From contig CAMPDV010000243.1 in the NCBI GenBank assembly GCA_946699065.1, positions 62,001 through 126,000 on the forward strand: a stretch of DNA of 64,000 nucleotides. Direction: 5' to 3'. Below the pieces are notes generated by a model. That model saw only the letters and a program-made list of their open reading frames with translations. It did no database searches and was not told the origin of the DNA. The position numbers and the translations under genes were made by a program. Position 1 is the stretch's first letter, and every line of letters starts with the position of its first letter. This document shows, in pieces, positions 1 to 64,000 of this stretch. Source of the stretch: Loxodes magnus. Lineage: Eukaryota; Ciliophora; Karyorelictea; Loxodida; Loxodidae.

Positions 1-1
1 T

Positions 2-3000
2 ACCTGTCTTGACGTCCCATAGTCTCACCGTCTAATCTCCACTTCCCGATACGATGAACTCTGAATCACTGGATATAGCCACAGATCATACAGAACTAGT
101 GTGACCACTCATGGTCTAACAGATACCTGTCTTGACGTCCCATAGTCTCACCGTATAATATACACTTCCCGATACGATGAACTCAGAATCACTGGATATA
201 TCCACAGATCATACAGAACTAGTGTGACCACTCATGGTCTTACAGGTACCTGTCTTGACGTCCCATAGTCTCACCGTATAATCATGACTTCCCGATACGA
301 TGAACTCTGAATCACTGGATATAGCCACAGATCATACAGAACTAGTGTGACCACTCATGGTCTAACAGATACCTGTCTTGACGTCCCATAGTCTCACCGT
401 ATAATATACACTTCCGAATACGATGAACTCTGAATCACTAGATATAGCCACAGATCATACAGAACTAGTGTGACCACTCATGGTCTAACAGATACCTGTC
501 TTGACGTCCCATAGTCTCACCGTCTAATCATAACTTCCCGATACGATGAACTCTGAATCACTGGATATAGCCACAGATCATACATAACTAGTGTGACCAC
601 TCATGGTCTTACAGGTACCTGTCTTGACGTCCCATAGTCTCACCGTATAATATACACTTCCGAATACGATGAACTCTGAATCACTGGATATAGCCACAGA
701 TCATACAGAACTAGTGTGACCACTCATGGTCTAACAGATACCTGTCTTGACGTCCCATAGTCTCACCGTCTAATCATGACTTCCCGATACGATGAACTCA
801 GAATCACTGGATATATCCACAGATAATACATAACTAGTGTGACCACTCATGGTCTTACAGGTACCTGTCTTGACGTCCCATAGTCTCACCGTATAATCAT
901 GACTTCCCGATACGATGAACTCTGAATCACTGGATATAGCCACAGCTTATACTCAATCTGTGTGACCACTCATGGTCTTACAGGTACCTGTCTTGACGTC
1001 CCATAGTCTCACCGTATAATCATGACTTCCCGATACGATGAACTCTGAATCACTGGATATAGCCACAGCTTATACTCAATCTGTGTGACCACTCATGGTC
1101 TAACAGATACCTGTCTTGACGTCCCATAGTCTCACCGTCTAATCATAACTTCCCGATACGATGAACTCTGAATCACTGTATATAGCCACAGCATTTACAT
1201 AACTAGTGTGACCACTCATGGTCTTACAGGTACCTGTCTTGAAGTCCCATAGTCTCACCGTATAATCATGACTTCCCGATACGATGAACTCTGAATCACT
1301 GGATATAGCCACAGATCATACAGAACTAGTGTGACCACTCATGGTCTAACAGATACCTGTCTTGACGTCCCATAGTCTCACCGTCTAATCTCCACTTCCC
1401 GATACGATGAACTCTGAATCACTGGATATAGCCACAGCTTATACTCAATCTGTGTGACCACTCATGGTCTTACAGGTACCTGTCTTGACGTCCCATAGTC
1501 TCACCGTATAATATACACTTCCGAATACGATGAACTCTGAATCACTGGATATAGCCACAGATAATACAGAACTAGTGTGACCACTCATGGTCTTACAGGT
1601 ACCTGTCTTGACGTCCCATAGTCTCACCGTATAATCATGACTTCCCGATACGATGAACTCTGAATCACTGGATATAGCCACAGCTTATACTCAATCTGTG
1701 TGACCACTCATGGTCTTACAGGTACCTGTCTTGACGTCCCATAGTCTCACCGTATAATCATGACTTCCCGATACGATGAACTCAGAATCACTGGATATAG
1801 CCACAGATCATACAGAACTAGTGTGACCACTCATGGTCTTACAGGTACCTGTCTTGACGTCCCATAGTCTCACCGTCTAATCATTACTTCCCGATACGAT
1901 GAACTCAGAATCACTGGATATAGCCACAGATCATACAGAACTAGTGTGACCACTCATGGTCTAACAGATACCTGTCTTGACGTCCCATAGTCTCACCGTC
2001 TAATCATTACTTCCCGATACTATGAGCTCTGAATCACTCGATATAGCCACAGATGATACAGAACTAGTGTGACCACTCATGGTCTTACAGGTACCTGTCT
2101 TGACGTCCCATAGTCTCACCGTATTATCTCAACTTCCCGATACGATGAACTCTGAATCACTGGATATAGCCACAGATCATACAGAATCTGTGTGACCACT
2201 CATGGTCTTACAGGTACCTGTCCTGACGTCCCATAGTCTCACCGTCTAATCTCCACTTCCCGATACGATGAACTCTGAATCACTGGATATAGCCACAGCT
2301 TATACTCAATCTGTGTGACCACTCATGGTCTTACAGGTACCTGTCTTGACGTCCCATAGTCTCACCGTATAATATACACTTCCGAATACGATGAACTCTG
2401 AATCACTGGATATAGCCACAGATCATACATAATCTGTGTGACCACTCATGGTCTTACAGGTACCTGTCTTGACGTCCCATAGTCTCACCGTATAATCATG
2501 ACTTCCCGATACGATGAACTCAGAATCACTGGATATAGCCACAGCAGATACATAACTAGTGTGACCACTCATGGTCTTACAGGTACCTGTCCTGACGTCC
2601 CATAGTCTCACCGTCTAATCATGACTTCCCGATACGATGAACTCTGAATCACTGGATATAGCCACAGCTTATACTCAATCTGTGTGACCACTCATGGTCT
2701 TACAGGTACCTGTCTTGACGTCCCATAGTCTCACCGTATAATATACACTTCCGAATACGATGAACTCTGAATCACTGGATATAGCCACAGCAGATACATA
2801 ACTAGTGTGACCACTCATGGTCTTACAGGTACCTGTCTTGACGTCCCATAGTCTCACCGTATTATCATGACTTCCCGATACGATGAACTCTGAATCACTG
2901 GATATAGCCACAGCTTATACTCAATCTGTGTGACTACTCATGGTCTTACAGGTACCTGTCTTGACGTCCCATAGTCTCACCGTCTAATTCACACTTCCGA

Positions 3001-6000
3001 ATACGATGAACTCTGAATCACTGGATATAGCCACAGCTTATACTCAATCTGTGTGACCACTCATGGTCTTACAGGTACCTGTCTTGACGTCCCATAGTCT
3101 CACCGTATAATCATGACTTCCCGATACGATGAACTCTGAATCACTGGATATAGCCACAGCAGATACATAACTAGTGTGACCACTCATGGTCTTACAGGTA
3201 CCTGTCCTGACGTCCCATAGTCTCACCGTATAATCATGACTTCCCGATACGATGAACTCAGAATCACTGGATATAGCCACAGATCATACAGAATCTGTGT
3301 GACCACTCATGGTCTTACAGGTACCTGTCTTGACGTCCCATAGTCTCACCGTCTAATCATTACTTCCCGATACGATGAACTCTGAATCACGGGATATAGC
3401 CACAGCATATACATTACTCGTGTGACCACTCATGGTCTTACAGGTACCTGTCTTGACGTCCCATAGTCTCACCGTATAATCATTACTTCCCGATACGATG
3501 AACTCTGAATCACTGGATATAGCCACAGATCATACAATATTAGTGTGACCACTCATGGTCTTACAGGTACCTGTCTTGACGTCCCATAGTCTCACCGTAT
3601 TATCTCAACTTCCCGATACGATGAACTCTGAATCACGGGATATAGCCACAGATGATACAGAACTAGTGTGACCACTCATGGTCTTACAGGTACCTGTCTT
3701 GACGTCCCATAGTCTCACCGTATAATCATGACTTCCCGATACGATGAACTCTGAATCACTGGATATAGCCACAGCATATACATAACTAGTGTGACCACTC
3801 ATGGTCTTACAGGTACCTGTCTTGACGTCCCATAGTCTCACCGTATTATCTCAACTTTCCGATACGATGAACTCTGAATCACTGGATATAGCCACAGCAG
3901 ATACATAACTAGTGTGACCACTCATGGTCTTACAGGTACCTGTCCTGACGTCCCATAGTCTCACCGCCTAATCTACACTTCCCGATACGATGAACTCTGA
4001 ATCAATGGATATAGCCACAGATCTTACAGAATCTGTGTGACCACTCATGGTCTAACAGGTACCTGTCTTGACGTCCCATAGTCTCACCGTCTAATATACA
4101 CTTCCGAATACGATGAACTCTGAATCACTGGATATAGCCACAGATAATACAGAACTAGTGTGACCACTCATGGTCTAACAGATACCTGTCTTGACGTCCC
4201 ATAGTCTCACCGTCTAATCTCCACTTCCCGATACGATGAACTCTGAATCACTGGATATAGCCACAGATGATACAGAACTAGTGTGACCACTCATGGTCTT
4301 ACAGGTACCTGTCTTGACGTCCCATAGTCTCACCGTCTAATAAACACTTCCGAATACGATGAACTCTGAATCACTGGATATAGCCACAGCATTTACATAA
4401 CTAGTGTGACCACTCATGGTCTTACAGGTACCTGTCTTGACGTCCCATAGTCTCACCGTATAATCATGACTTCCCGATACGATGAACTCTGAATCACTGG
4501 ATATAGCCACAGCATATACATAACTAGTGTGACCACTCATGGTCTAACAGATACCTGTCTTGACGTCCCATAGTCTCACCGTCTAATCATGACTTCCCGA
4601 TACGATGAACTCAGAATCACTGGATATAGCCACAGCTTATACTCAATCTGTGTGACCACTCATGATCTTACAGGTACCTGTCTTGACGTCCCATAGTCTC
4701 ACCGTCTAATCATTACTTCCCGATACTATGAACTCTGAATCACTGGATATAGCCACAGCATATACATTACTCGTGTGACCACTCATGGTCTTACAGGTAC
4801 CTGTCTTGACGTCCCATAGTCTCACCGTATAATCATTACTTCCCGATACGATGAACTCTGAATCACTGGATATAGCCACAGATCATACAATATTAGTGTG
4901 ACCACTCATGGTCTTACAGGTACCTGTCTTGACGTCCCATAGTCTCACCGTCTAATCATTACTTCCCGATACTATGAACTCTGAATCACTGGATATAGCC
5001 ACAGATCATACAGAACTAGTGTGACTACTCATGGTCTTACAGGTACCTGTCTTGACGTCCCATAGTCTCACCGTCTAATTCACACTTCCGAATACGATGA
5101 ACTCTGAATCACTGGATATAGCCACAGCTTATACTCAATCTGTGTGACCACTCATGGTCTAACAGATACCTGTCTTGACGTCCCATAGTCTCACCGTCTA
5201 ATCATGACTTCCCGATACTATGAACTCAGAATCACTGGATATAGCCACAGATCATACAGAACTAGTGTGACCACTCATGGTCTTACAGGTACCTGTCTTG
5301 ACGTCCCATAGTCTCACCGTATTATCTCAACTTCCCGATACGATGAACTCTGAATCACTGGATATAGCCACAGATCATACAGAACTAGTGTGACCACTCA
5401 TGGTCTTACAGATACCTGTCTTGACGTCCCATAGTCTCACCGTATAATCATAACTTCCCGATACTATGAACTCAGAATCACTGGATATAGCCACAGATCT
5501 TACAGAATCTGTGTGACTACTCATGGTCTTACAGGTACCTGTCTTGACGTCCCATAGTCTCACCGTCTAATTCACACTTCCGAATACGATGAACTCTGAA
5601 TCACTGGATATAGCCACAGCTTATACTCAATCTGTGTGACTACTCATGGTCTTACAGGTACCTGTCTTGACGTCCCATAGTCTCACCGTCTAATTCACAC
5701 TTCCGAATACGATGAACTCTGAATCACTGGATATAGCCACAGCTTATACTCAATCTGTGTGACCACTCATGGTCTTACAGATACCTGTCTTGACGTCCCA
5801 TAGTCTCACCGTCTAATCTCCACTTCCCGATACGATGAACTCTGAATCACTGGATATAGCCACAGCAGATACATAACTAGTGTGACCACTCATGGTCTTA
5901 CAGATACCTGTCTTGACGTCCCATAGTCTCACCGTCTAATCATTACTTCCCGATACTATGAACTCAGAATCACTGGATATAGCCACAGATCATACAGAAC

Positions 6001-9000
6001 TAGTGTGACCACTCATGGTCTTACAGGTACCTGTCTTGACGTCCCATAGTCTCACCGTATAATCATTACTTCCCGATACGATGAACTCTGAATCACTGGA
6101 TATAGCCACAGATGATACAGAACTAGTGTGACCACTCATGGTCTTACAGGTACCTGTCTTGACGTCCCATAGTCTCACCGTATAATCATGACTTCCCGAT
6201 ACGATGAACTCTGAATCACGGGATATAGCCACAGATGATACAGAACTAGTGTGACCACTCATGGTCTTACAGGTACCTGTCTTGACGTCCCATAGTCTCA
6301 CCGTATAATCATGACTTCCCGATACGATGAACTCTGAATCACTGGATATAGCCACAGCATATACATTACTCGTGTGACCACTCATGGTCTAACAGGTACC
6401 TGTCTTGACGTCCCATAGTCTCACCGTATAATCATTACTTCCCGATACTATGAACTCTGAATCACTGGATATAGCCACAGATCATACAATATTAGTGTGA
6501 CCACTCATGGTCTTACAGGTACCTGTCTTGACGTCCCATAGTCTCACCGTCTAATCATAACTTCCCGATACTATGAACTCTGAATCACTGGATATAGCCA
6601 CAGATCATACAATATTAGTGTGACCACTCATGGTCTTACAGGTACCTGTCTTGACGTCCCATAGTCTCACCGTATAATCATTACTTCCCGATACTATGAA
6701 CTCTGAATCACTGGATATAGCCACAGATGATACAGAACTAATGTGACCACTCATGGTCTAACAGATACCTGTCTTGACGTCCCATAGTCTCACCGTATTA
6801 TCATGACTTCCCGATACGATGAACTCTGAATCACTGGATATAGCCACAGATCATACAATATTAGTGTGACCACTCATGGTCTTACAGGTACCTGTCTTGA
6901 CGTCCCATAGTCTCACCGTATAATCATGACTTCCCGATACTATGAACTCTGAATAACTGGATATGGCCACAGATGATACAGAACTAGTGTGACCACTCAT
7001 GGTCTTACAGGTACCTGTCTTGACGTCCCATAGTCTCACCGTCTAATCATGACTTCCCGATACGATGAACTCTGAATCACTGGATATAGCCACAGATCAT
7101 ACAATATTAGTGTGACCACTCATGGTCTTACAGGTACCTGTCTTGACGTCCCATAGTCTCACCGTCTAATCATTACTTCCCGATACTATGAACTCTGAAT
7201 CACTGGATATAGCCACAGATCTTACAGAATCTGTGTGACTACTCATGGTCTTACAGGTACCTGTCTTGACGTCCCATAGTCTCACCGTCTAATTCACACT
7301 TCCGAATACGATGAACTCTGAATCACTGGATATAGCCACAGCTTATACTCAATCTGTGTGACTACTCATGGTCTTACAGGTACCTGTCTTGACGTCCCAT
7401 AGTCTCACCGTCTAATTCACACTTCCGAATACGATGAACTCTGAATCACTGGATATAGCCACAGCTTATACTCAATCTGTGTGACCACTCATGGTCTTAC
7501 AGATACCTGTCTTGACGTCCCATAGTCTCACCGTATTATCTCAACTTCCCGATACGATGAACTCAGAATCACTGGATATAGCCACAGATCATACAGAACT
7601 AGTGTGACCACTCATGGTCTTACAGGTACCTGTCTTGACGTCCCATAGTCTCACCGTCTAATCATTACTTCCCGATACGATGAACTCTGAATCACTGGAT
7701 ATAGCCACAGATCATACAGAATCTGTGTGACCACTCATGGTCTTACAGGTACCTGTCTTGACGTCCCATAGTCTCACCGTATAATCATTACTTCCCGATA
7801 CGATGAACTCTGAATCACTGGATATAGCCACAGATGATACAGAACTAGTGTGACCACTCATGGTCTTACAGGTACCTGTCTTGACGTCCCATAGTCTCAC
7901 CGTATAATCATGACTTCCCGATACGATGAACTCAGAATCACTGGATATAGCCACAGATCATACAGAACTAGTGTGACCACTCATGGTCTTACAGATACCT
8001 GTCTTGACGTCCCATAGTCTCACCGTCTAATCATTACTTCCCGATACTATGAACTCTGAATCACTCGATATAGCCACAGATCATACAGAACTAGTGTGAC
8101 CACTCATGGTCTTACAGGTACCTGTCTTGACGTCCCATAGTCTCACCGTATAATCATGACTTCCCGATACGATGAACTCTGAATCACTGGATATAGCCAC
8201 AGCTTATACTCAATCTGTGTGACCACTCATGGTCTTACAGATATCTGTCTTGACGTCCCATAGTCTCACCGTATAATCATGACTTCCCGATACTATGAAC
8301 TCAGAATCACTGGATATAGCCACAGATCATACAGAACTAGTGTGACCACTCATGGTCTTACAGGTACCTGTCTTGACGTCCCATAGTCTCACCGTCTTAT
8401 CATTACTTCCCGATACTATGAACTCTGAATCAATGGATAAAGCTACAGATCTTACAGAATCTGTGTGACCACTCATGGTCTTACAGGTACCTGTCTTGAC
8501 GTCCCATAGTCTCACCGTCTAATCATGACTTCCCGATACTATGAACTCTGAATCACTGGATATAGCCACAGATAATACATAACTAGTGTGACCACTCATG
8601 GTCTTACAGGTACCTGTCTTGACGTCCCATAGTCTCACCGTCTAATCATTACTTCCCGATACTATGAACTCTGAATCACTCGATATAGCCACAGATGATA
8701 CATAACTAGTGTGACCACTCATGGTCTTACAGGTACCTGTCTTGACGTCCCATAGTCTCACCGTCTAATATACACTTCCGAATACGATGAACTCTGAATC
8801 ACTGGATATAGCCACAGATAATACATAACTAGTGTGACCACTCATGGTCTTACAGATACCTGTCTTGACGTCCCATAGTCTCACCGTCTAATATACACTT
8901 CCCGATACGATGAACTCTGAATCACTGGATATAGCCACAGCATATACATTACTCGTGTGACCACTCATGGTCTTACAGGTACCTGTCTTGACGTCCCATA

Positions 9001-12000
9001 GTCTCACCGTCTAATCTCCACTTCCCGATACGATGAACTCTGAATCACTGGATATAGCCACAGATGATACAGAACTAGTGTGACCACTCATGGTCTTACA
9101 GGTACCTGTCTTGACGTCCCATAGTCTCACCGTATAATCATTACTTCCCGATACTATGAACTCTGAATCACTGGATATAGCCACAGATCATACAATATTA
9201 GTGTGACCACTCATGGTCTTACAGGTACCTGTCTTGACGTCCCATAGTCTCACCGTATAATCATTACTTCCCGATACGATGAACTCTGAATCACTGGATA
9301 TAGCCACAGATGATACAGAACTAGTGTGACCACTCATGGTCTTACAGATACCTGTCTTGACGTCCCATAGTCTCACCGTATAATCATTACTTCCCGATAC
9401 TATGAACTCTGAATCACTGGATATAGCCACAGATCATACAGAACTAGTGTGACCACTCATGGTCTTACAGATACCTGTCTTGACGTCCCATAGTCTCACC
9501 GTCTAATCTCCACTTCCCGATACGATGAACTCTGAATCACTGGATATAGCCACAGCATATACATTACTCGTGTGACCACTCATGGTCTTACAGGTACCTG
9601 TCTTGACGTCCCATAGTCTCACCGTATAATCATTACTTCCCGATACGATGAACTCTGAATCACTGGATATAGCCACAGATCTTACAGAATCTGTGTGACT
9701 ACTCATGGTCTTACAGGTACCTGTCTTGACGTCCCATAGTCTCACCGTCTAATTCACACTTCCGAATACGATGAACTCAGAATCACTGGATATAGCCACA
9801 GCATATACATTACTCGTGTGACCACTCATGGTCTTACAGGTACCTGTCTTGACGTCCCATAGTCTCACCGTCTAATCTCCACTTCCCGATACGATGAACT
9901 CTGAATCACTGGATATAGCCACAGCATATACATTACTCGTGTGACCACTCATGGTCTTACAGGTACCTGTCTTGACGTCCCATAGTCTCACCGTCTAATC
10001 TCCACTTCCCGATACGATGAACTCTGAATCACTGGATATAGCCACAGATCTTACAGAATCTGTGTGACTACTCATGGTCTTACAGGTACCTGTCTTGACG
10101 TCCCATAGTCTCACCGTCTAATTCACACTTCCGAATACGATGAACTCTGAATCACTGGATATAGCCACAGCTTATACTCAATCTGTGTGACTACTCATGG
10201 TCTTACAGGTACCTGTCTTGACGTCCCATAGTCTCACCGTCTAATTCACACTTCCGAATACGATGAACTCTGAATCACTGGATATAGCCACAGCATATAC
10301 ATTACTCGTGTGACCACTCATGGTCTTACAGGTACCTGTCTTGACGTCCCATAGTCTCACCGTCTAATCATTACTTACCGATACGATGAACTCTGAATCA
10401 CTGGATATAGCCACAGCATATACATTACTCGTGTGACCACTCATGGTCTTACAGGTACCTGTCTTGACGTCCCATAGTCTCACCGTCTAATCTCCACTTC
10501 CCGATACGATGAACTCTGAATCACTGGATATAGCCACAGCATATACATTACTAGTGTGACCACTCATGGTCTTACAGGTACCTGTCTTGACGTCCCATAG
10601 TCTCACCGTTTAATCATGACTTCCCGATACGATGAACTCTGAATCACTGGATATAGCCACAGATCATACAGAACTAGTGTGACCACTCATGGTCTTACAG
10701 GTACCTGTCTTGACGTCCCATAGTCTCACCGTATAATCATGACTTCCCGATACGATGAACTCAGAATCACTGGATATAGCCACAGCATATACATTACTCG
10801 TGTGACCACTCATGGTCTTACAGGTACCTGTCTTGACGTCCCATAGTCTCACCGTATTATCATAACTTTCCGATACGATGAACTCTGAATCACTGGATAT
10901 AGCCACAGCAGATACATAACTAGTGTGACCACTCATGGTCTTACAGGTACCTGTCCTGACGTCTCATAGTCTCACCGCCTAATCTACACTTCCCGATACG
11001 ATGAACTCTGAATCAATGGATATAGCCACAGATCTTACAGAATCTGTGTGACCACTCATGGTCTTACAGGTACCTGTCTTGACGTCCCATAGTCTCACCG
11101 TCTAATCTCCACTTCCCGATACGATGAACTCTGAATCACTGGATATAGCCACAGATCATACAGAACTAGTGTGACCACTCATGGTCTTACAGATACCTGT
11201 CTTGACGTCCCATAGTCTCACCGTCTAATCATTACTTCCCGATACTATGAACTCAGAATCACTGGATATAGCCACAGCATATACATTACTCGTGTGACCA
11301 CTCATGGTCTTACAGGTACCTGTCTTGACGTCCCATAGTCTCACCGTATAATCATGACTTCCCGATACTATGAACTCTGAATCACTGGATATAGCCACAG
11401 ATCATACAATATTAGTGTGACCACTCATGGTCTTACAGGTACCTGTCTTGACGTCCCATAGTCTCACCGTCTAATCATGACTTCCCGATACGATGAACTC
11501 TGAATCACTGGATATAGCCACAGCTTATACTCAATCTGTGTGACCACTCATGGTCTTACAGATACCTGTCTTGACGTCCCATAGTCTCACCGTATAATCA
11601 TGACTTCCCGATACGATGAACTCTGAATCACTGGATATAGCCACAGCTTATACTCAATCTGTGTGACCACTCATGGTCTTACAGGTACCTGTCTTGACGT
11701 CCCATAGTCTCACCGTCTAATCTCCACTTCCCGATACGATGAACTCTGAATCACTGGATATAGCCACAGCTTATACTCAATCTGTGTGACCACTCATGGT
11801 CTTACAGGTACCTGTCTTGACGTCCCATAGTCTCACCGTCTAATCTCCACTTCCCGATACGATGAACTCTGAATCACTGGATATAGCCACAGCATATACA
11901 TTACTCGTGTGACCACTCATGGTCTTACAGGTACCTGTCTTGACGTCCCATAGTCTCACCGTATAATCATGACTTCCCGATACGATGAACTCTGAATCAC

Positions 12001-24565: not shown

Positions 24566-24576
24566 CTTGAACTAGT
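24561..24576 (-). other. Frame-shifting unit allele, type 1
   Basis: The plus strand reads cacttgaact where other units have catacagaact, one base shorter with linked substitutions. On the coding strand GHTSSVWSVA becomes GHTSSS before the phase changes. Several linked differences make a sequencing slip unlikely. Confidence 0.8.
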
Positions 24577-25429: not shown

Positions 25430-25433
25430 CTAG
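25424..25433 (-). other. Frame-shifting unit allele, type 2, second copy
   Basis: This is the duplicate of the type 2 allele at 24688, with the same linked gaaatctg change. Confidence 0.8.
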
Positions 25434-41415: not shown

Positions 41416-41512
41416 ACAGTGTGACCACTCATGGTCTTACAGGTACCTGTCTTGACGTCCCATAGTCTCACCGTATAATCATGACTTCCCGATACGATGA
41501 ACTCTGAATCAT
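41415..41512 (-). other. Short out-of-phase stretch between two shortenings
   Basis: About 32 codons lie between two one-base shortenings less than one unit apart: gaacagtg for gaactagtg near 41415-41418, and cattgata for cactggata near 41511-41515. In its own frame the stretch still encodes the rest of a WD40 unit (DSEFIV through GHT). Neither shortened allele was seen elsewhere in the window, unlike the more common shortened alleles, so these look like young or assembly-level changes. Confidence 0.6.
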
Positions 41513-43252: not shown

Positions 43253-43262
43253 CTTGAACTAG
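43248..43262 (-). other. Frame-shifting unit allele, type 1, third copy
   Basis: This is the same shortened allele as at 24561, about 18.7 kb away, exactly seven units from the next copy. Confidence 0.8.
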
Positions 43263-44112
43263 TGTGACCACTCATGGTCTTACAGGTACCTGTCTTGACG
43301 TCCCATAGTCTCACCGTATAATCATGACTTCCCGATACGATGAACTCTGAATCACTGGATATAGCCACAGCTTATACTCAATCTGTGTGACCACTCATGG
43401 TCTTACAGGTACCTGTCTTGACGTCCCATAGTCTCACCGTATTATCTCAACTTCCCGATACGATGAACTCTGAATCACGGGATATAGCCACAGATCATAC
43501 AGAACTAGTGTGACCACTCATGGTCTTACAGGTACCTGTCTTGACGTCCCATAGTCTCACCGCCTAATCATAACTTCCCGATACGATGAACTCTGAATCA
43601 CTGGATATAGCCACAGATGATACAGAACTAGTGTGACCACTCATGGTCTTACAGGTACCTGTCTTGACGTCCCATAGTCTCACCGTATAATCATAACTTT
43701 CCGATACGATGAACTCTGAATCACTGGATATAGCCACAGCAGATACATAACTAGTGTGACCACTCATGGTCTTACAGGTACCTGTCCTGACGTCCCATAG
43801 TCTCACCGCCTAATCTACACTTCCCGATACGATGAACTCTGAATCACGGGATATAGCTACAGATCTTACAGAATCTGTGTGACCACTCATGGTCTTACAG
43901 GTACCTGTCTTGACGTCCCATAGTCTCACCGTCTAATCGTCACTTCCCGATACGATGAACTCTGAATCACTGGATATAGCCACAGCAGATACATAACCCG
44001 TGTGACCACTCATGGTCTTACAGGTACTTGTCTTGACGTCCCATAGTCTCACCGTATTATCATAACTTTCCGATACGATGAACTCTGAATCACTGGATAT
44101 AGCCACAGATCA
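43252..44112 (-). CDS. WD40-repeat open block C, seven units
   Basis: This block has 287 codons, exactly seven WD40 units between two copies of the same shortened allele. Seven is the usual number of blades in one closed propeller, but this may be chance, because other block lengths are not multiples of seven. The units include [15 protein letters not shown] (from cccgtgtgacc on the plus strand) and WDVRTG variants. The frame differs by one base from block B upstream and block D downstream. Confidence 0.65.
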
Positions 44113-44122
44113 CTTGAACTAG
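44108..44122 (-). other. Frame-shifting unit allele, type 1, fourth copy
   Basis: It follows the 43248 copy at seven units. The flanking unit order is largely shared between the two, pointing to a seven-unit duplication. Confidence 0.8.
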
Positions 44123-52475: not shown

Positions 52476-52484
52476 CTTGAACTA
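52470..52484 (-). other. Frame-shifting unit allele, type 1, fifth copy
   Basis: This is the only shortening above 44.2 kb. It separates the 3842-codon block from the 2788-codon block. A duplicate of the surrounding region (50757 matches 52970, 18 units minus one base) has the full-length allele at the equivalent place, so the shortened form is not needed there. Confidence 0.8.
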
Positions 52485-55400
52485 GTGTGACCACTCATGG
52501 TCTTACAGGTACCTGTCTTGACGTCCCATAGTCTCACCGTATTATCATAACTTTCCGATACGATGAACTCTGAATCACTGGATATAGCCACAGATAATAC
52601 CTAATTAGTGTGACCACTCATGGTCTTACAGGTACCTGTCTTGAAGTCCCATAGTCTCACCGTCTAATATACACTTCCGAATACGATGAACTCTGAATCA
52701 CTGGATATAGCCACAGATAATACATAACTAGTGTGACCACTCATGGTCTTACAGGTACCTGTCTTGACGTCCCATAGTCTCACCGTCTAATCATGACTTC
52801 CCGATACTATGAACTCTGAATCACTGGATATAGCCACAGATAATAAATAACTCGTGTGACCACTCATGGTCTAACAGGTACCTGTCTTGACGTCCCATAG
52901 TCTCACCGTCTAATCATTACTTCCCGATACTATGAACTCTGAATCACTGGATATAGCCACAGCTTATACTCAATCTGTGTGACCACTCATGGTCTTACAG
53001 GTACCTGTCTTGACGTCCCATAGTCTCACCGTATTATCATTACTTCCCGATACTATGAACTCTGAATCACTCGATATAGCCACAGCATATACATTACTCG
53101 TGTGACCACTCATGGTCTTACAGGTACCTGTCTTGACGTCCCATAGTCTCACCGTCTAATCATTACTTCCCGATACTATGAACTCTGAATCACTGGATAT
53201 AGCCACAGCTTATACTCAATCTGTGTGACCACTCATGGTCTTACAGGTACCTGTCTTGACGTCCCATAGTCTCACCGTATTATCTCAACTTCCCGATACG
53301 ATGAACTCTGAATCACGGGATATAGCCACAGATCATACAGAACTAGTGTGACCACTCATGGTCTTACAGATACCTGTCTTGACGTCCCATAGTCTCACCG
53401 TCTAATCGTCACTTCCCGATACGATGAACTCTGAATCACTCGATATAGCCACAGATAATACCTAATTAGTGTGACCACTCATGGTCTAACAGATACCTGT
53501 CTTGACGTCCCATAGTCTCACCGTCTAATATACACTTCCGACTACGATGAACTCTGAATCACTGGATATAGCCACAGATAATACATAACTAGTGTGACCA
53601 CTCATGGTCTTACAGGTACCTGTCTTGACGTCCCATAGTCTCACCGTATTATCATAACTTTCCGATACGATGAACTCTGAATCACTGGATATAGCCACAG
53701 ATAATACCTAATTAGTGTGACCACTCATGGTCTTACAGGTACCTGTCTTGAAGTCCCATAGTCTCACCGTCTAATATACACTTCCGAATACGATGAACTC
53801 TGAATCACTGGATATAGCCACAGATAATACATAACTAGTGTGACCACTCATGGTCATACAGGTACCTGTCTTGACGTCCCATAGTCTCACCGTATAATCA
53901 TGACTTCCCGATACTATGAACTCAGAATCACTGGATATAGCCACAGATCATACAGAACTAGTGTGACCACTCATGGTCTTACAGGTACCTGTCTTGACGT
54001 CCCATAGTCTCACCGTCTAATCATTACTTCCCGATACTATGAACTCTCAATCAATGGATATAGCTACAGATCTTACAGAATCTGTGTGACCACTCATGGT
54101 CTTACAGGTACCTGTCTTGACGTCCCATAGTCTCACCGTCTAATCATGACTTCCCGATACTATGAACTCTGAATCACTGGATATAGCCACAGATAATAAA
54201 TAACTAGTGTGACCACTCATGGTCTTACAGGTACCTGTCTTGACGTCCCATAGTCTCACCGTCTAATCATTACTTCCCGATACTATGAACTCTGAATCAC
54301 TCGATATAGCCACAGATGATACATAACTAGTGTGACCACTCATGGTCTTACAGGTACCTGTCTTGACGTCCCATAGTCTCACCGTCTAATATACACTTCC
54401 GAATACGATGAACTCTGAATCACTGGATATAGCCACAGATAATACATAACTAGTGTGACCACTCATGGTCTTACAGGTACCTGTCTTGACGTCCCATAGT
54501 CTCACCGTATTATCATAACTTTCCGATACGATGAACTCTGAATCACTGGATATAGCCACAGATAATACCTAATTAGTGTGACCACTCATGGTCTTACAGG
54601 TACCTGTCTTGAAGTCCCATAGTCTCACCGTCTAATATACACTTCCGAATACGATGAACTCTGAATCACTGGATATAGCCACAGATAATACAGAACTAGT
54701 GTGACCACTCATGGTCTTACAGATACCTGTCTTGACGTCCCATAGTCTCACCGTCTAATCATTACTTCCCGATACTATGAACTCTGAATCACTCGATATA
54801 GCCACAGCATATACATTACTCGTGTGACCACTCATGGTCTAACAGATACCTGTCTTGACGTCCCATAGTCTCACCGTATTATCATAACTTTCCGATACGA
54901 TGAACTCTGAATCACTGGATATAGCCACAGATAATACCTAATTAGTGTGACCACTCATGGTCTTACAGATACCTGTCTTGACGTCCCATAGTCTCACCGT
55001 CTAATCGTCACTTCCGAATACGATGAACTCTGAATCACTGGATATAGCCACAGATGATACAGAACTAGTGTGACCACTCATGGTCTAACAGGTACCTGTC
55101 TTGACGTCCCATAGTCTCACCGTCTAATCTCCACTTTCCGATACGATGAACTCTGAATCACTGGATATAGCCACAGCAGATACATAACTAGTGTGACCAC
55201 TCATGGTCTTACAGGTACCTGTCTTGACGTCCCATAGTCTCACCGTATAATCATGACTTCCCGATACGATGAACTCTGAATCACTCGATATAGCCACAGA
55301 TAATACCTAATTAGTGTGACCACTCATGGTCTAACAGATACCTGTCTTGACGTCCCATAGTCTCACCGTCTAATATACACTTCCGACTACGATGAACTCT

Positions 55401-58400
55401 GAATCACTGGATATAGCCACAGATAATACATAACTAGTGTGACCACTCATGGTCTTACAGGTACCTGTCTTGACGTCCCATAGTCTCACCGTATTATCAT
55501 AACTTTCCGATACGATGAACTCTGAATCACTGGATATAGCCACAGATAATACCTAATTAGTGTGACCACTCATGGTCTTACAGGTACCTGTCTTGAAGTC
55601 CCATAGTCTCACCGTCTAATATACACTTCCGAATACGATGAACTCTGAATCACTGGATATAGCCACAGCTTATACTCAATCTGTGTGACCACTCATGGTC
55701 TTACAGGTACCTGTCTTGACGTCCCATAGTCTCACCGTATTATCATAACTTTCCGATACGATGAACTCTGAATCACTGGATATAGCCACAGATAATACCT
55801 AATTAGTGTGACCACTCATGGTCTTACAGGTACCTGTCTTGAAGTCCCATAGTCTCACCGTCTAATATACACTTCCCGATACTATGAACTCTGAATCAAT
55901 GGATATAGCCACAGATAATACAGAACTAGTGTGACCACTCATGGTCTTACAGGTACCTGTCTTGACGTCCCATAGTCTCACCGTCTAATCATGACTTCCC
56001 GATACGATGAACTCTGAATCACTGGATATAGCCACAGCAGATACATAACTAGTGTGACCACTCATGGTCTTACAGGTACCTGTCCTGACGTCCCATAGTC
56101 TCACCGTCTAATATACACTTCCGAATACGATGAACTCTGAATCACTGGATATAGCCACAGATAATACAGAACTAGTGTGACCACTCATGGTCTTACAGGT
56201 ACATGTCCTGACGTCTCATAGTCTCACCGCCTAATCTACACTTCCCGATACGATGAACTCTGAATCAATGGATATAGCCACAGATCTTACAGAATCTGTG
56301 TGACCACTCATGGTCTTACAGGTACCTGTCTTGACGTCCCATAGTCTCACCGCCTAATCTACACTTCTCGATACGATGAACTCAGAATCACTCGATATAG
56401 CCACAGCTTATACTCAATCTGTGTGACCACTCATGGTCTTACAGATACCTGTCTTGACGTCCCATAGTCTCACCGTCTAATCTCCACTTCCCGATACGAT
56501 GAACTCTGAATCACTGGATATAGCCACAGCATATACATTACTCGTGTGACCACTCATGGTCTTACAGATACCTGTCTTGACGTCCCATAGTCTCACCGTC
56601 TAATCGTCACTTCCCGATACGATGAACTCTGAATCACTCGATATAGCCACAGATAATACCTAATTAGTGTGACCACTCATGGTCTAACAGATACCTGTCT
56701 TGACGTCCCATAGTCTCACCGTCTAATATACACTTCCGACTACGATGAACTCTGAATCACTGGATATAGCCACAGATAATACATAACTAGTGTGACCACT
56801 CATGGTCTTACAGGTACCTGTCTTGACGTCCCATAGTCTCACCGTATTATCATAACTTTCCGATACGATGAACTCTGAATCACTGGATATAGCCACAGAT
56901 AATACCTAATTAGTGTGACCACTCATGGTCTTACAGGTACCTGTCTTGAAGTCCCATAGTCTCACCGTCTAATATACACTTCCGAATACGATGAACTCTG
57001 AATCACTGGATATAGCCACAGATAATACATAACTAGTGTGACCACTCATGGTCTTACAGGTACCTGTCTTGACGTCCCATAGTCTCACCGTATAATCATG
57101 ACTTCCCGATACTATGAACTCAGAATCACTGGATATAGCCACAGATCATACAGAACTAGTGTGACCACTCATGGTCTTACAGGTACCTGTCTTGACGTCC
57201 CATAGTCTCACCGTCTAATCATTACTTCCCGATACTATGAACTCTGAATCAATGGATATAGCTACAGATCTTACAGAATCTGTGTGACCACTCATGGTCT
57301 TACAGATACCTGTCTTGACGTCCCATAGTCTCACCGTCTAATATACACTTCCGAATACGATGAACTCTGAATCACTGGATATAGCCACAGATGATACATA
57401 ACTAGTGTGACCACTCATGGTCTTACAGATACCTGTCTTGACGTCCCATAGTCTCACCGTATAATCATGACTTCCCGATACGATGAACTCTGAATCACTG
57501 GATATAGCCACAGCTTATACTCAATCTGTGTGACCACTCATGGTCTTACAGGTACCTGTCTTGACGTCCCATAGTCTCACCGTATAATCATGACTTCCCG
57601 ATACGATGAACTCTGAATCACTGGATATAGCCACAGCATATACATTACTCGTGTGACCACTCATGGTCTAACAGATACCTGTCTTGACGTCCCATAGTCT
57701 CACCGTCTAATATACACTTCCCGATACGATGAACTCTGAATCACTGGATATAGCCACAGCTTATACTCAATCTGTGTGACCACTCATGGTCTTACAGGTA
57801 CCTGTCTTGACGTCCCATAGTCTCACCGTTTAATATACACTTCCGAATACGATGAACTCTGAATCACTGGATATAGCCACAGATAATACATAACTAGTGT
57901 GACCACTCATGGTCTTACAGGTACCTGTCTTGACGTCCCATAGTCTCACCTTATTATCATAACTTTCCGATACGATGAACTCTGAATCACTGGATATAGC
58001 CACAGCAGATACATAACTAGTGTGACCACTCATGGTCTTACAGGTACCTGTCCTGACGTCCCATAGTCTCACCGCCTAATCTACACTTCCCGATACGATG
58101 AACTCTGAATCAATCGATATAGCCACAGATCTTACAGAATCTGTGTGACCACTCATGGTCTTACAGGTACCTGTCTTGACGTCCCATAGTCTCACCGTCT
58201 TATCATAACTTCCCGATACGATGAACTCTCAATCACTGGATATAGCCACAGATAATACATAACTAGTGTGACCACTCATGGTCTTACAGGTACCTGTCTT
58301 GACGTCCCATAGTCTCACCGTCTAATCATGACTTCCCGATACGATGAACTCTGAATCACTGGATATAGCCACAGCTTATACTCAATCTGTGTGACCACTC

Positions 58401-61400
58401 ATGGTCTTACAGGTACCTGTCCTGACGTCCCATAGTCTCACCGCCTAATCTACACTTCCCGATACGATGAACTCAGTATCACTGGATATAGCCACAGATC
58501 TTACAGAATCTGTGTGACCACTCATGGTCTTACAGGTACCTGTCTTGACGTCCCATAGTCTCACCGCCTAATCTACACTTCCCGATACGATGAACTCTGA
58601 ATCAATGGATATAGCCACAGATAATACAGAACTAGTGTGACCACTCATGGTCTTACAGGTACCTGTCTTGACGTCCCATAGTCTCACCGTCTAATCATGA
58701 CTTCCCGATACGATGAACTCTGAATCAATGGATATAGCCACAGCAGATACATAACTAGTGTGACCACTCATGGTCTTACAGGTACCTGTCCTGACGTCCC
58801 ATAGTCTCACCGCCTAATCTACACTTCCCGATACGATGAACTCAGTATCACTGGATATAGCCACAGATCTTACAGAATCTGTGTGACCACTCATGGTCTT
58901 ACAGGTACCTGTCTTGACGTCCCATAGTCTCACCGCCTAATCATAACTTCCCGATACTATGAACTCTGAATCACTGGATATAGCCACAGATCATACAATA
59001 TTAGTGTGACCACTCATGGTCTTACAGATACCTGTCTTGACGTCCCATAGTCTCACCGTCTAATATACACTTCCGAATACGATGAACTCAGAATCACTCG
59101 ATATAACCACAGATAATACATAACTAGTGTGACCACTCATGGTCTTACAGGTACCTGTCTTGACGTCCCATAGTCTCACCGTCTTATCATAACTTCCCGA
59201 TACGATGAACTCTCAATCACTGGATATAGCCACAGATAATACATAACTAGTGTGACCACTCATGGTCTTACAGATACCTGTCTTGACGTCCCATAGTCTC
59301 ACCGTCTAATATACACTTCCGAATACGATGAACTCAGAATCACTCGATATAACCACAAATAATACATAACTAGTGTGACCACTCATGGTCTTACAGGTAC
59401 CTGTCTTGACGTCCCATAGTCTCACCGTCTTATCATAACTTCCCGATACGATGAACTCTCAATCACTGGATATAGCCACAGATAATACATAACTAGTGTG
59501 ACCACTCATGGTCTTACAGATACCTGTCTTGACGTCCCATAGTCTCACCGTCTAATATACACTTCCGAATACGATGAACTCTGAATCACTGGATATAGCC
59601 ACAGATAATACATAACTAGTGTGACCACTCATGGTCTTACAGATACCTGTCTTGACGTCCCATAGTCTCACCGTATTATCTCAACTTCCCGATACGATGA
59701 ACTCTGAATCACGGGATATAGCCACAGCTTATACTCAATCTGTGTGACCACTCATGGTCTTACAGGTACCTGTCTTGACGTCCCATAGTCTCACCGTATA
59801 ATCATGACTTCCCGATACGATGAACTCTGAATCACTGGATATAGCCACAGCATATACATTACTCGTGTGACCACTCATGGTCTAACAGATACCTGTCTTG
59901 ACGTCCCATAGTCTCACCGTATTATCATAACTTTCCGATACGATGAACTCTGAATCACTGGATATAGCCACAGATAATACCTAATTAGTGTGACCACTCA
60001 TGGTCTTACAGGTACCTGTCTTGAAGTCCCATAGTCTCACCGTCTAATATACACTTCCGAATACGATGAACTCTGAATCACTGGATATAGCCACAGATAA
60101 TACATAACTAGTGTGACCACTCATGGTCTTACAGGTACCTGTCTTGACGTCCCATAGTCTCACCGTCTTATCATAACTTCCGAATACGATGAACTCTGAA
60201 TCACTGGATATAGCCACAGATAATACATAACTAGTGTGACCACTCATGGTCTTACAGGTACCTGTCTTGACGTCCCATAGTCTCACCGCCTAATCATAAC
60301 TTCCCGATACTATGAACTCTGAATCACTGGATATAGCCACAGATCATACAATATTAGTGTGACCACTCATGGTCTTACAGATACCTGTCTTGACGTCCCA
60401 TAGTCTCACCGTCTAATATACACTTCCGAATACGATGAACTCTGAATCACTGGATATAGCCACAGATGATACATAACTAGTGTGACCACTCATGGTCTTA
60501 CAGATACCTGTCTTGACGTCCCATAGTCTCACCGTATAATCATGACTTCCCGATACGATGAACTCTGAATCACTGGATATAGCCACAGCTTATACTCAAT
60601 CTGTGTGACCACTCATGGTCTTACAGGTACCTGTCTTGACGTCCCATAGTCTCACCGTATAATCATGACTTCCCGATACGATGAACTCTGAATCACTGGA
60701 TATAGCCACAGCATATACATTACTCGTGTGACCACTCATGGTCTAACAGATACCTGTCTTGACGTCCCATAGTCTCACCGTATTATCATAACTTTCCGAT
60801 ACGATGAACTCTGAATCACTGGATATAGCCACAGATAATACCTAATTAGTGTGACCACTCATGGTCTTACAGGTACCTGTCTTGACGTCCCATAGTCTCA
60901 CCGTATTATCTCAACTTTCCGATACGATGAACTCTGAATCACGGGATATAGCCACAGATCATACAGAACTAGTGTGACCACTCATGGTCTTACAGGTACC
61001 TGTCTTGACGTCCCATAGTCTCACCGCCTAATCATAACTTCCCGATACGATGAACTCTGAATCACTGGATATAGCCACAGATCTTACAGAATCTGTGTGA
61101 CCACTCATGGTCTTACAGGTACCTGTCTTGACGTCCCATAGTCTCACCGTATAATCATAACTTTCCGATACGATGAACTCTGAATCACTGGATATAGCCA
61201 CAGCAGATACATAACTAGTGTGACCACTCATGGTCTTACAGGTACCTGTCCTGACGTCCCATAGTCTCACCGCCTAATCTACACTTCCCGATACGATGAA
61301 CTCTGAATCACGGGATATAGCTACAGATCTTACAGAATCTGTGTGACCACTCATGGTCTTACAGGTACCTGTCTTGACGTCCCATAGTCTCACCGTCTAA

Positions 61401-64000
61401 TCGTCACTTCCCGATACGATGAACTCTGAATCACTGGATATAGCCACAGATCTTACAGAATCTGTGTGACCACTCATGGTCTTACAGGTACCTGTCTTGA
61501 CGTCCCATAGTCTCACCGTATAATCATGACTTCCCGATACGATGAACTCTGAATCACTGGATATAGCCACAGCTTATACTCAATCTGTGTGACCACTCAT
61601 GGTCTTACAGGTACCTGTCTTGACGTCCCATAGTCTCACCGTCTAATATACACTTCCGAATACGATGAACTCTGAATCACTGGATATAGCCACAGATAAT
61701 ACAGAACTAGTGTGACCACTCATGGTCTTACAGATACCTGTCTTGACGTCCCATAGTCTCACCGCCTAATCATAACTTCCCGATACTATGAACTCTGAAT
61801 CACTGGATATAGCCACAGATCATACAATATTAGTGTGACCACTCATGGTCTTACAGATACCTGTCTTGACGTCCCATAGTCTCACCGTCTAATATACACT
61901 TCCGAATACGATGAACTCTGAATCACTGGATATAGCCACAGATGATACATAACTAGTGTGACCACTCATGGTCTTACAGATACCTGTCTTGACGTCCCAT
62001 AGTCTCACCGTATAATCATGACTTCCCGATACGATGAACTCTGAATCACTGGATATAGCCACAGCTTATACTCAATCTGTGTGACCACTCATGGTCTTAC
62101 AGGTACCTGTCTTGACGTCCCATAGTCTCACCGTATAATCATGACTTCCCGATACGATGAACTCTGAATCACTGGATATAGCCACAGCATATACATTACT
62201 CGTGTGACCACTCATGGTCTAACAGATACCTGTCTTGACGTCCCATAGTCTCACCGTATTATCATAACTTTCCGATACGATGAACTCTGAATCACTGGAT
62301 ATAGCCACAGATAATACCTAATTAGTGTGACCACTCATGGTCTTACAGGTACCTGTCTTGAAGTCCCATAGTCTCACCGTCTAATATACACTTCCGAATA
62401 CGATGAACTCTGAATCACTGGATATAGCCACAGATAATACATAACTAGTGTGACCACTCATGGTCTTACAGGTACCTGTCTTGACGTCCCATAGTCTCAC
62501 CGTCTTATCATAACTTCCCGATACGATGAACTCTCAATCACTGGATATAGCCACAGATAATACATAACTAGTGTGACCACTCATGGTCTTACAGGTACCT
62601 GTCTTGACGTCCCATAGTCTCACCGTCTAATCATGACTTCCCGATACGATGAACTCTGAATCACTGGATATAGCCACAGCTTATACTCAATCTGTGTGAC
62701 CACTCATGGTCTTACAGGTACCTGTCTTGACGTCCCATAGTCTCACCGTATTATCTCAACTTCCCGATACGATGAACTCTGAATCACGGGATATAGCCAC
62801 AGATCATACAGAACTAGTGTGACCACTCATGGTCTTACAGATACCTGTCTTGACGTCCCATAGTCTCACCGTCTAATCGTCACTTCCCGATACGATGAAC
62901 TCTGAATCACTGGATATAGCCACAGATCTTACAGAATCTGTGTGACCACTCATGGTCTTACAGGTACCTGTCTTGACGTCCCATAGTCTCACCGTATAAT
63001 CATGACTTCCCGATACGATGAACTCTGAATCACTGGATATAGCCACAGCTTATACTCAATCTGTGTGACCACTCATGGTCTTACAGGTACCTGTCTTGAC
63101 GTCCCATAGTCTCACCGTATTATCATAACTTTCCGATACGATGAACTCTGAATCACTGGATATAGCCACAGCAGATACATAACTAGTGTGACCACTCATG
63201 GTCTTACAGGTACCTGTCCTGACGTCCCATAGTCTCACCGCCTAATCTACACTTCCCGATACGATGAACTCTGAATCAATGGATATAGCCACAGATCTTA
63301 CAGAATCTGTGTGACCACTCATGGTCTTACAGGTACCTGTCTTGACGTCCCATAGTCTCACCGTATAATCATGACTTCCCGATACGATGAACTCTGAATC
63401 ACTGGATATAGCCACAGCTTATACTCAATCTGTGTGACCACTCATGGTCTTACAGGTACCTGTCTTGACGTCCCATAGTCTCACCGTATTATCTCAACTT
63501 TCCGATACGATGAACTCTGAATCACGGGATATAGCCACAGATCATACAGAACTAGTGTGACCACTCATGGTCTTACAGATACCTGTCTTGACGTCCCATA
63601 GTCTCACCGTCTAATCGTCACTTCCCGATACGATGAACTCTGAATCAATGGATATAGCCACAGATAATACCTAATTAGTGTGACCACTCATGGTCTTACA
63701 GGTACCTGTCTTGACGTCCCATAGTCTCACCGCCTAATCATAACTTCCCGATACGATGAACTCTGAATCACTGGATATAGCCACAGATCTTACAGAATCT
63801 GTGTGACCACTCATGGTCTTACAGGTACCTGTCTTGACGTCCCATAGTCTCACCGTATAATCATAACTTTCCGATACGATGAACTCTGAATCACTGGATA
63901 TAGCCACAGCAGATACATAACTAGTGTGACCACTCATGGTCTTACAGGTACCTGTCCTGACGTCCCATAGTCTCACCGTCTTATCATAACTTCCCGATAC
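52475..64000 (-). CDS. Giant WD40-repeat protein, open block A (5'-most, partial)
   Basis: This block has 3842 codons, about 93.7 WD40 units, all in one frame with no indel, if UGA is read as Trp and UAR as Gln. Its 5' end lies outside the window and no initiator can be assigned. WD40 units fold as four-stranded blades, usually seven per propeller, and serve as binding platforms; the partner is unknown. Typical units here read GHTNQVLSVA (TAG at position 5), FGSVYQT (TAG at 25) and SGSWDNT (TGA at 23). One unit has TGA for the blade Trp at 56216-56218. TGA also replaces Ser15 at 54047, 58229, 59213, 59459 and 62534, the least WD40-like stop position. The block ends at a one-base shortening near 52475. 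The WD40 call is certain; translation as one protein is inferred from the open frame. Confidence 0.8.
61028..63976 (-). repeat. 22-unit repeated segment
   Basis: The unit pair at 61028-61270 recurs at 63734-63976, exactly 2706 bases (22 units) away. The unit order around 59.9-61.2 kb and 62.2-63.9 kb is largely shared. Confidence 0.7.

What the first reader, a model, noticed from the sequence alone, without database searches (positions are those of the whole stretch)
1..64000. A 64 kb WD40 array that opens only if all three stop codons are sense codons
Under the standard code the longest open stretch is 131 codons. Reading UGA as Trp and UAA/UAG as Gln leaves no in-frame stop in the units I read and gives blocks of up to 8188 codons. 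A code that frees only UGA (as in mycoplasmas or Blepharisma) or only UAR (as in Tetrahymena) leaves the array broken. Known nuclear codes that free all three are those of karyorelict ciliates, Condylostoma, Amoebophrya and Blastocrithidia. A gene this long with no fixed stop codon would be an extreme case for context-dependent termination.
Basis: partly seen in the sequence, partly recalled or inferred. Interest (0 to 1): 0.93.

Follow-up and report, generated by a model that had tools for sequence, protein, structure and literature searches.

The report
WD40 repeat satellite with sense stops
This stretch is one huge run of about 520 near-identical copies of a protein repeat, probably grown from a recognition gene of an organism that reads stop codons as amino acids, but the run itself no longer looks like one working gene.

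Summary
The array is real. The 64 kb are one tandem repeat of a 123-bp, 41-codon WD40 unit on the minus strand: 508 intervals of 123 bp, 12 of 122 bp. In the WD40 frame all three stops recur, 722 in 508 units; freeing only UGA or only UAR leaves it broken. Open-frame length is weak evidence, because a 3x41-bp repeat opens frames by periodicity: an antisense frame runs 8190 codons with UAG kept.

The better evidence is position. 644 of 722 stops sit in four codon columns whose spacing matches the four codons under diversifying selection in fungal WD40 immune receptors. Variation there is old; rare mutations are spread evenly. So the stops probably were sense codons in the founder gene. Which residues they meant could not be established.

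Against a live giant gene: 12 one-base deletions make 13 frame blocks, recurrent ones copied by duplication, and changes outside the four columns look neutral.

Source organism, tRNAs, flanks and expression could not be tested. Best reading: a drifting satellite grown from a diversified WD40 receptor gene of an all-sense-stop eukaryote.

The parts
1..64000 (-). Tandem array of a 123-bp WD40 repeat; runs off both ends of the window
   Evidence: TRF: period 123, 520.4 copies, 92% matches, 1-64000; 521 anchors, 508 intervals of 123 bp and 12 of 122 bp; PF00400 in a sense-only 131-aa piece, E 4.7e-34
1..24502 (-). Longest block in one WD40 frame, 8167 codons if all stops are sense
52413..64000 (-). 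Second longest block in one WD40 frame, 3862 codons
31877..41346 (-). Third longest block in one WD40 frame, 3156 codons
52413..52534 (-). 122-bp unit carrying a one-base net deletion (frameshift); its lesion recurs in 5 of the 12 such units
44050..44171 (-). 122-bp frameshift unit, same lesion as at 52413
43190..43311 (-). 122-bp frameshift unit, identical to the one at 52413
41347..41590 (-). Two adjacent 122-bp frameshift units, each with a lesion seen once
31877..31998 (-). 122-bp frameshift unit; this lesion recurs in 4 of the 12
31140..31261 (-). 122-bp frameshift unit with a lesion seen once
27943..28064 (-). 122-bp frameshift unit, same lesion as at 31877
25239..25482 (-). Two adjacent 122-bp frameshift units, repeated as a pair at 24503-24746
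24503..24746 (-). Two adjacent 122-bp frameshift units, copy of the pair at 25239-25482
5990..6385 (-). Longest standard-code ORF, 131 aa, about three WD40 units; the query for relatives

Best explanation
A satellite-like tandem array grown by repeated unequal exchange from a small set of founder repeats of a WD40 gene of the 'high internal conservation' type (WD40 repeats almost identical except at four ligand-facing codons, as in fungal NACHT-WD40 receptors). The founder gene belonged to an organism, most likely a ciliate or other protist, in which all three stop codons were read inside genes (UGA as Trp and UAA/UAG as Gln fit best with known codes), so the stops at the four variable codons were ordinary residues. 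The array was then amplified to more than 520 copies and now drifts: one-base deletions and amino-acid changes arise and are copied along with neighbouring units without detectable selection. Shown: array, columns, frameshifts, near-neutral pattern, block duplication. Inferred: founder gene function, reassigned code, protist origin, unequal exchange as the engine.
For: (1) 644 of 722 stops lie in columns 19, 21, 37, 39. One offset (+12) of 41 maps the four codons 7, 9, 25, 27 under positive selection in Podospora WD40 repeats (PMC1805685, passages) exactly onto them; the six most variable columns are all among the seven high dN/dS positions in PMC12222747 (passages) at one offset, reached by 1 of 20,000 random sets. 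(2) Two eras: common alleles (>30 copies) fill 17 of 36 possible changes in those columns and 16 of 333 elsewhere (Fisher p 5e-11), while rare alleles (<=3 copies) are 2 of 36 and 32 of 333 (p 0.56). So the variation, stops included, is older than the present drift and lies where selection acts. (3) 0 TGG in 2032 variable codons and 0 CAR anywhere, against Trp or Gln in these columns in 17 of 19 relative arrays. TGA occurs in columns 19, 21 and 37 and never in 39; Trp is the commonest residue of the relatives in 19 and 21, present in 37, and not among the twelve commonest in 39. (4) Decay: 12 of 520 intervals lose one base, 8 distinct sequences, two lesions accounting for 9 of 12. Outside the four columns 47 nonsynonymous and 17 synonymous alleles, neutral expectation 75% nonsynonymous, omega about 0.93; omega 0.2 rejected, p 4e-9, omega 0.5 p 0.015. 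(5) 16 runs of 4 or more identical consecutive units, longest 9; none in three shuffles.
Against: Code inference from relatives is not specific: TCT at columns 19 and 21 is also called Trp, as is AGA by one of two scores; UAA is called Trp; UAG is split among Gln, Arg and Lys; UAR jointly is called Arg. Sense codons were recovered first in 24 of 38 cases. Pfam PF00400 scores: 7 of 9 other readings beat Trp for UGA, 4 of 9 beat Gln for UAG, 8 of 9 beat Gln for UAA; the control shows the test would also reject the true meaning of TAT. Zero CAR and zero TGG at the variable columns is odd even under a reassigned code: in Amoebophrya dynein genes UAR is mixed with CAR and UGG is preferred (PMC6394959, passages). 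Two of 19 relative arrays have no Trp or Gln in these columns, so their absence can be chance. Columns 11 (63), 29 (8) and 3 (7) also hold stops. Common alleles alone have a lower omega (0.53, or 0.37 with ten columns left out), so the older part of the array's history may have been constrained. Founder alleles are few, so counts of copies overstate the evidence.
Confidence: 0.5

Rival explanations
1. A standard-code pseudogene satellite: a WD40 gene of an ordinary eukaryote or bacterium died, was amplified as a tandem repeat, and stops accumulated freely.
For: Near-neutral ratio outside the variable columns; stop-creating changes not avoided there (3 of 11 possible ones seen, TGG to TGA included, against 61 of 322 other changes; my tally); recurrent frameshifts; meanings of the stops not inferable with confidence. 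The stops are one step from coexisting sense codons (TCA, TTA, TAT, AAG). No CAR and no TGG at variable columns needs no special code here.
Against: Stops that arose after death should fall in all columns, but 644 of 722 lie in the four diversifying codons, which hold 17 of 36 possible common alleles against 16 of 333 elsewhere, while rare alleles are even. That needs the stops to be as old as the selected variation.
Confidence: 0.25
2. A living giant gene or gene cluster: a receptor with hundreds of WD40 repeats translated through all stops.
For: Frame blocks up to 8167 codons; only 123- and 122-bp units, no other lengths; read through by table 27, an 8-unit piece is predicted as a confident propeller (pLDDT 93.2, pTM 0.89), as WD40 sequence would be anyway; common alleles with ten columns left out (5 N, 4 S) do not exclude constraint (p 0.27 against omega 0.2).
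Against: 13 frame blocks; deletions copied to several places; omega 0.2 rejected in every other allele class tested, though for common alleles with four columns left out only at p 0.047; no period of 7 or 8 units that would mark propellers.
Confidence: 0.12
3. [quoted passage not shown]
For: The unit is of the kind found in fungal NLRs, where RIP is discussed as a source of mutation (PMC1805685, PMC4986451, passages). Dinucleotide ratios TpA/ApT 0.91 and (CpA+TpG)/(ApC+GpT) 0.93 pass thresholds that I recall for RIP.
Against: Outside the four columns C-to-T or G-to-A alleles are not enriched at CpA/TpG: 7 of 18 sites against 15 of 34 other sites, 34 copies against 487. CAC in column 16 is intact in 508 of 508 units. 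From the coexisting codons many stops need transversions (TCA-TGA, TAT-TAG). No CAR remains as a source.
Confidence: 0.04
4. Assembly or sequencing artefact: the length of the array and the 122-bp units come from misassembly of a shorter repeat or from read errors.
For: Arrays of 123-bp units with many identical copies are hard to assemble; misassembly of tandem repeats is suspected in Loxodes magnus long-read assemblies (PMC11441545, section 8), and a one-base homopolymer misassembly is reported in a het-d array (PMC12222747, passages).
Against: 255 distinct unit sequences in 520, so not a simple collapse; the same lesion recurs with linked variants in distant units. This concerns copy number, not the presence of stops.
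Confidence: 0.09

Closest known systems
Podospora anserina NACHT-WD40 (NWD/HNWD: het-d, het-e, het-r) repeats of high internal conservation
   Same: Near-identical WD40 repeats (92% here); variation concentrated in the same four codon positions, paired around a conserved codon; repeats shuffled by exchange
   Different: Repeat 41 not 42 codons; 520+ copies, not about 11 (PMC12222747, passages); stops in the variable codons; frame broken 12 times; no NACHT or effector part in the window
Karyorelict code, NCBI table 27 (Loxodes, Parduczia) and Condylostoma code, table 28
   Same: UAA, UAG and UGA all inside reading frames (PMC4967479, passages). Loxodes magnus (PMC11441545, section 8 and passages) also has very large amounts of tandem repeat in its long-read assemblies (231-359 Mbp)
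   Different: Window G+C is about 44%, against 33.5% for L. magnus coding sequence; no flanking gene, tRNA or transcript to confirm the code; no CAR codons at all
Amoebophrya sp. ex Karlodinium veneficum (UAR=Gln, UGA=Trp, context-dependent)
   Same: All three stops interrupt about half of its annotated, transcribed genes (PMC12005148, passages)
   Different: UGG favoured over UGA and CAR mixed with UAR in its dynein genes (PMC6394959, passages); here TGA only and TAR only at the variable columns
Cyanobacterial and other bacterial NB-ARC/NACHT-WD40 proteins, and the Nostoc repetitive propeller 2ymu
   Same: Closest sequence relatives found: up to 57% identity among the 40 of 177 plasmid records listed, all below 60%, 35-52% in nine genome contigs; 2ymu best in the PDB by sequence (its Nostoc origin is recalled)
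   Different: Taken here as open standard-code frames; 5-16 units per array examined

Membership tests
High-internal-conservation WD40 repeat (NLR sensor type) | WD40 repeat | tested here: met
   PF00400 E 4.7e-34 on the sense-only 131 aa; PDB hits 2ymu, WRAP designs
High-internal-conservation WD40 repeat (NLR sensor type) | Repeats above about 85% identical within the array | tested here: met
   92% matches; threshold from PMC4986451 (passages)
High-internal-conservation WD40 repeat (NLR sensor type) | Variation concentrated at the four positively selected codons | tested here: met
High-internal-conservation WD40 repeat (NLR sensor type) | NACHT or NB-ARC domain upstream in the same gene | not testable with these tools
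   Window lies wholly inside the array and no genome is held
High-internal-conservation WD40 repeat (NLR sensor type) | One open frame through the repeats | tested here: not met
   Stops in the standard code; 12 frameshifts under any triplet code
All-sense-stop nuclear code (tables 27/28 type) | UGA at Trp sites and UAR at Gln sites of homologues | tested here: inconclusive
   UGA fits Trp but so does a sense control; UAG Gln/Arg/Lys; UAA not Gln; Pfam test without power
All-sense-stop nuclear code (tables 27/28 type) | UGA used beside UGG, UAR beside CAR | tested here: not met
   At the variable columns 260 TGA and 0 TGG, 384 TAR and 0 CAR; at the invariant Trp column TGG 501 and TGA 7. Expectation taken from Amoebophrya
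All-sense-stop nuclear code (tables 27/28 type) | Suppressor tRNAs, modified Trp tRNA or eRF1, stops near transcript ends | not testable with these tools
   No genome held, no tRNA found in the window
Satellite DNA | Long head-to-tail array, homogenised, with block duplications | tested here: met
Satellite DNA | No selection on coding content | tested here: met
   omega about 0.93 outside four columns, omega 0.2 rejected (p 4e-9); stop and frameshift alleles tolerated; common alleles alone less clear (omega 0.53, p 0.047)
RIP-mutated repeat | C-to-T excess at CpA | tested here: not met
   7 of 18 CpA/TpG sites against 15 of 34 others outside the four columns, although bulk dinucleotide ratios look RIP-like

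The most novel reading that the evidence does not exclude
A reservoir of more than 520 WD40 recognition cassettes in an organism with no dedicated stop codon, feeding active receptor genes by gene conversion, in which Trp and Gln at the ligand-facing codons are written only with former stop codons (0 TGG and 0 CAR in 2032 such codons), so that the same codons diversify the binding face and can end translation when context changes.
Probability: 0.08. Interest if true: 0.85.

Novelty: new variant of a known kind. Interest (0 to 1): 0.5.

Why it matters
If the founder gene did read all three stops as residues, this locus would show an immune-receptor-type WD40 repertoire diversified partly with former stop codons, and how such a coding repeat becomes a satellite. 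Multi-copy diversified repeats with stops in the selected codons would give a within-genome test of stop reassignment. If instead the organism has the standard code, it is an unusual but ordinary dead array, and a warning that open-frame length proves little in repeats whose unit is a multiple of three.

Tried and rejected
Code inference from bacterial relatives: 232 repeat units from 17 loci, 5 dropped for 20 or more gaps, 227 used (one search printed 178 units with fewer than 8 gaps). UGA came out as Trp, but the control codon TCT at columns 19 and 21 did too, so I do not count it as proof. Codon-column pairs with fewer than 5 copies were left out (for example TAA in column 39, 4 copies). 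The per-array table uses 222 of the 227 units (arrays of 5 or more).

Pfam scoring of alternative readings, ten residues tried per stop codon on one stretch of 1000 codons: no preference for Trp or Gln. Control: reading TAT as Asn or Arg raises PF00400 from 762.1 to 783.9 and 782.9, so the true reading would lose; reading TCT as Arg lowers it to 733.0. The test has no power at these columns and was set aside.

Looking for the same array elsewhere: no relative in viral contigs with two of three scans; the third gave one unrelated bacterial-looking WD40 ORF (L018); none in phages; bacterial relatives only in genome contigs and plasmids. Rfam: nothing at the gathering threshold. My first table-27 Pfam query (second protein) was out of frame and its hits are meaningless; repeated in frame.

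Literature: searches. I saw no paper in these listings (10 of 16, 2 of 2, 15 of 15, 10 of 90, 4 of 4, 5 of 5, 0 and 4 of 4 papers shown) whose title or abstract start described a WD40-derived satellite or WD40 arrays with reassigned stops; (satellite DNA, WD40, tandem array, coding sequence) gave 0 papers. This covers open-licence PMC only.

Diversity-generating retroelement: considered because variable sites approach saturation (four bases at codon 21 position 2); rejected without a search, because I know of none that acts on hundreds of units and all bases vary, not only A.

Caveats of the neutral test: each base change is counted against the consensus, TGG-to-TGA is counted as synonymous (table 27), and the joint change in columns 34-35 is counted as separate alleles.

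Full report
What is there. The whole window is one tandem array. TRF gives period 123, 520.4 copies and 92% matches over 1-64000. On the minus strand 521 anchors are spaced 123 bp (508 intervals) or 122 bp (12 intervals), with no other length. The unit translates as a 41-residue WD40 repeat ([34 protein letters not shown]). A sense-only 131-aa piece hits PF00400 at 4.7e-34; its best PDB relatives by sequence are the repetitive propeller 2ymu and designed WRAP propellers. ARAGORN found no tRNA, Rfam no match at its gathering scores. There is no flank; both ends are inside the array. No genome is held for the window.

The stops. In the 508 full units there are 722 stop codons in the WD40 frame: 275 TGA, 320 TAG, 127 TAA. 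71 of 508 units have none, and no more than two stop-free units follow each other. Locked to the WD40 frame, the longest open stretch is 132 codons with all stops, 263 with UGA free, 542 with UAR free, 819 with only UAA kept, 409 with only UAG kept. Its weight is limited: a repeat of 3x41 bases opens frames by periodicity, and on the opposite strand a frame that is not WD40 stays open for 8190 codons when only UAG is a stop and another for 5270 when only UAA is. Freeing all three opens any sequence.

Where the stops are. 644 of 722 lie in four columns, 19, 21, 37 and 39; the others are TAG in column 11 (63), TGA in 29 (8) and TGA at the invariant Trp, column 3 (7). In Podospora NACHT-WD40 receptors four codons, numbers 7, 9, 25 and 27, are under strong positive selection, in pairs around a conserved codon, at the protein-interaction face (PMC1805685, passages). 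Exactly one of 41 offsets, +12, lays that pattern on columns 19, 21, 37, 39, and the codons between, Val 20 and Asp 38, are conserved (494 and 444 of 508). A later list of seven high dN/dS positions (PMC12222747, passages) contains all six of the window's most variable columns at one offset; 1 of 20,000 random sets does as well (12 of 20,000 for the top seven columns, of which six match; 277 of 20,000 for the top four alone). In 19 bacterial arrays the same four columns are among the six most variable on average.

Two eras. In the four columns 17 of 36 possible base changes are common (>30 copies), against 16 of 333 in the rest (p 5e-11); rare changes (<=3 copies) are 2 of 36 and 32 of 333 (p 0.56). 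Old variation is focused on the selected codons, new variation is not. Since the stops are among the common alleles of those codons (TAG39 239 copies, TAA21 115, TGA19 108, TGA21 102, TGA37 50), they seem to date from the time when the repeat was a selected protein. This is my main reason to think they were sense codons. It is an inference from few founder alleles: block 17-22 has ten versions with 18 or more copies, four of them with a stop.

What they meant. Trp is the commonest residue of relatives in columns 19 and 21 and present in 37; Gln is the commonest in 39 in the table of 178 gap-filtered units, second to Lys in the later table of 227. 17 of 19 relative arrays have Trp or Gln in the four columns (0-39% of these codons over the 19); in the window no TGG occurs there (0 of 2032) and no CAA/CAG anywhere (0 of 20,828 codons), while stops make up 644 of 2032. 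With TGA=Trp and TAR=Gln the share, 32%, falls in the relatives' range. Against this, a bootstrap over relatives calls UGA Trp but also calls the sense codon TCT Trp at columns 19 and 21, calls UAA Trp, and leaves UAG among Arg, Gln and Lys. Pfam scores do not favour Trp or Gln: 7 of 9 other residues beat Trp for UGA, 4 of 9 beat Gln for UAG, 8 of 9 beat Gln for UAA, with a control that shows no power. Complete absence of CAR and of TGG at these columns is also unexpected under a reassigned code, to judge by Amoebophrya, where both spellings coexist (PMC6394959, passages). So the particular residues are not established.

Is it a gene now? The twelve 122-bp units have 8 distinct sequences; one lesion occurs in 5 of them and another in 4, with linked variants, once as a duplicated pair. 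They cut the WD40 frame into 13 blocks of 40 to 8167 codons. Outside the four columns there are 47 nonsynonymous and 17 synonymous alleles, just the neutral share (75% expected); alleles with 4-30 copies, unlikely to be read errors, are 14 to 2. Omega 0.2 is rejected for all alleles (p 4e-9), omega 0.5 less firmly (p 0.015; p 0.11 for rare alleles alone). Leaving out ten columns gives 35 to 12 (p 3e-7 against omega 0.2). Common alleles are less clear: 10 to 6 (omega 0.53, p 0.047 against 0.2), or 5 to 4 with ten columns left out (p 0.27), which leaves room for constraint in the past. On the whole the array evolves like a satellite. Sixteen runs of four or more identical units at two places (longest nine; zero in three shuffles) show duplication of blocks; lags of 7 or 8 units are not special.

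RIP. Bulk ratios look RIP-like (0.91, 0.93; thresholds recalled), but outside the four columns C-to-T changes are not enriched at CpA/TpG (7 of 18 against 15 of 34 sites).

Structure. Eight units read by table 27 are predicted as a propeller (mean pLDDT 93.2, pTM 0.89), best PDB matches ODA16 and 2ymu. This says that the read-through is a good WD40 sequence; it does not test the code.

Origin. Not determined. All-sense-stop codes are known in Condylostoma and Parduczia (PMC4967479, passages), Loxodes (PMC11441545, passages), Amoebophrya (PMC12005148 and PMC6394959, passages) and Blastocrithidia (UAR=Glu; abstract start of PMC12153298 in the listing). Loxodes magnus combines table 27 with 231-359 Mbp of tandem repeat in its assemblies (PMC11441545, section 8), which is the most suggestive setting, but its coding G+C is 33.5% against about 44% here.

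Verdict. Real array, real stops, placed where a receptor's variable residues lie. Most likely a drifting satellite descended from a diversified WD40 receptor gene of an organism that reads all three stops as amino acids (0.5). A dead standard-code array (0.25) and a live giant gene (0.12) remain open until the source genome is seen.

Noticed in passing
window 3-24572, + strand: An 8190-codon open frame on the strand opposite the WD40 frame when only UAG is a stop; an effect of the 3x41-bp period.
   Followed up: yes
window, whole array, codon columns 21 and 37: Single base positions are near saturation: codon 21 position 2 is A172 G143 C117 T76, codon 37 position 1 is G163 T123 C118 A104. Strong diversification or targeted mutation in the past.
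   Followed up: partly
window, columns 34-35 of the unit, 58 copies: TCGGGA is replaced by TTCGGA: either two substitutions or a length-compensated insertion plus deletion, which keeps the frame.
   Followed up: no
window, column 3 of units 63, 171, 343, 359, 376, 412, 431 (counted from 0 at the 64000 end): The invariant WD40 tryptophan TGG is TGA in 7 scattered units, silent if UGA is Trp.
   Followed up: partly
window 24503-52534: All twelve 122-bp units lie in this middle part; none in 1-24502 or 52535-64000.
   Followed up: no
L018 5938-6330: A short bacterial-looking WD40 ORF near proline-synthesis-like ORFs, an integrase-like ORF and a helix-turn-helix-like ORF in an IMG/VR contig; names are mine from reading the translations, not searched.
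   Followed up: no
L012 1196-6199: Tolypothrix plasmid caspase-family protein with 16 WD40 units found and no Trp or Gln in the four variable columns, a useful counter-example.
   Followed up: partly
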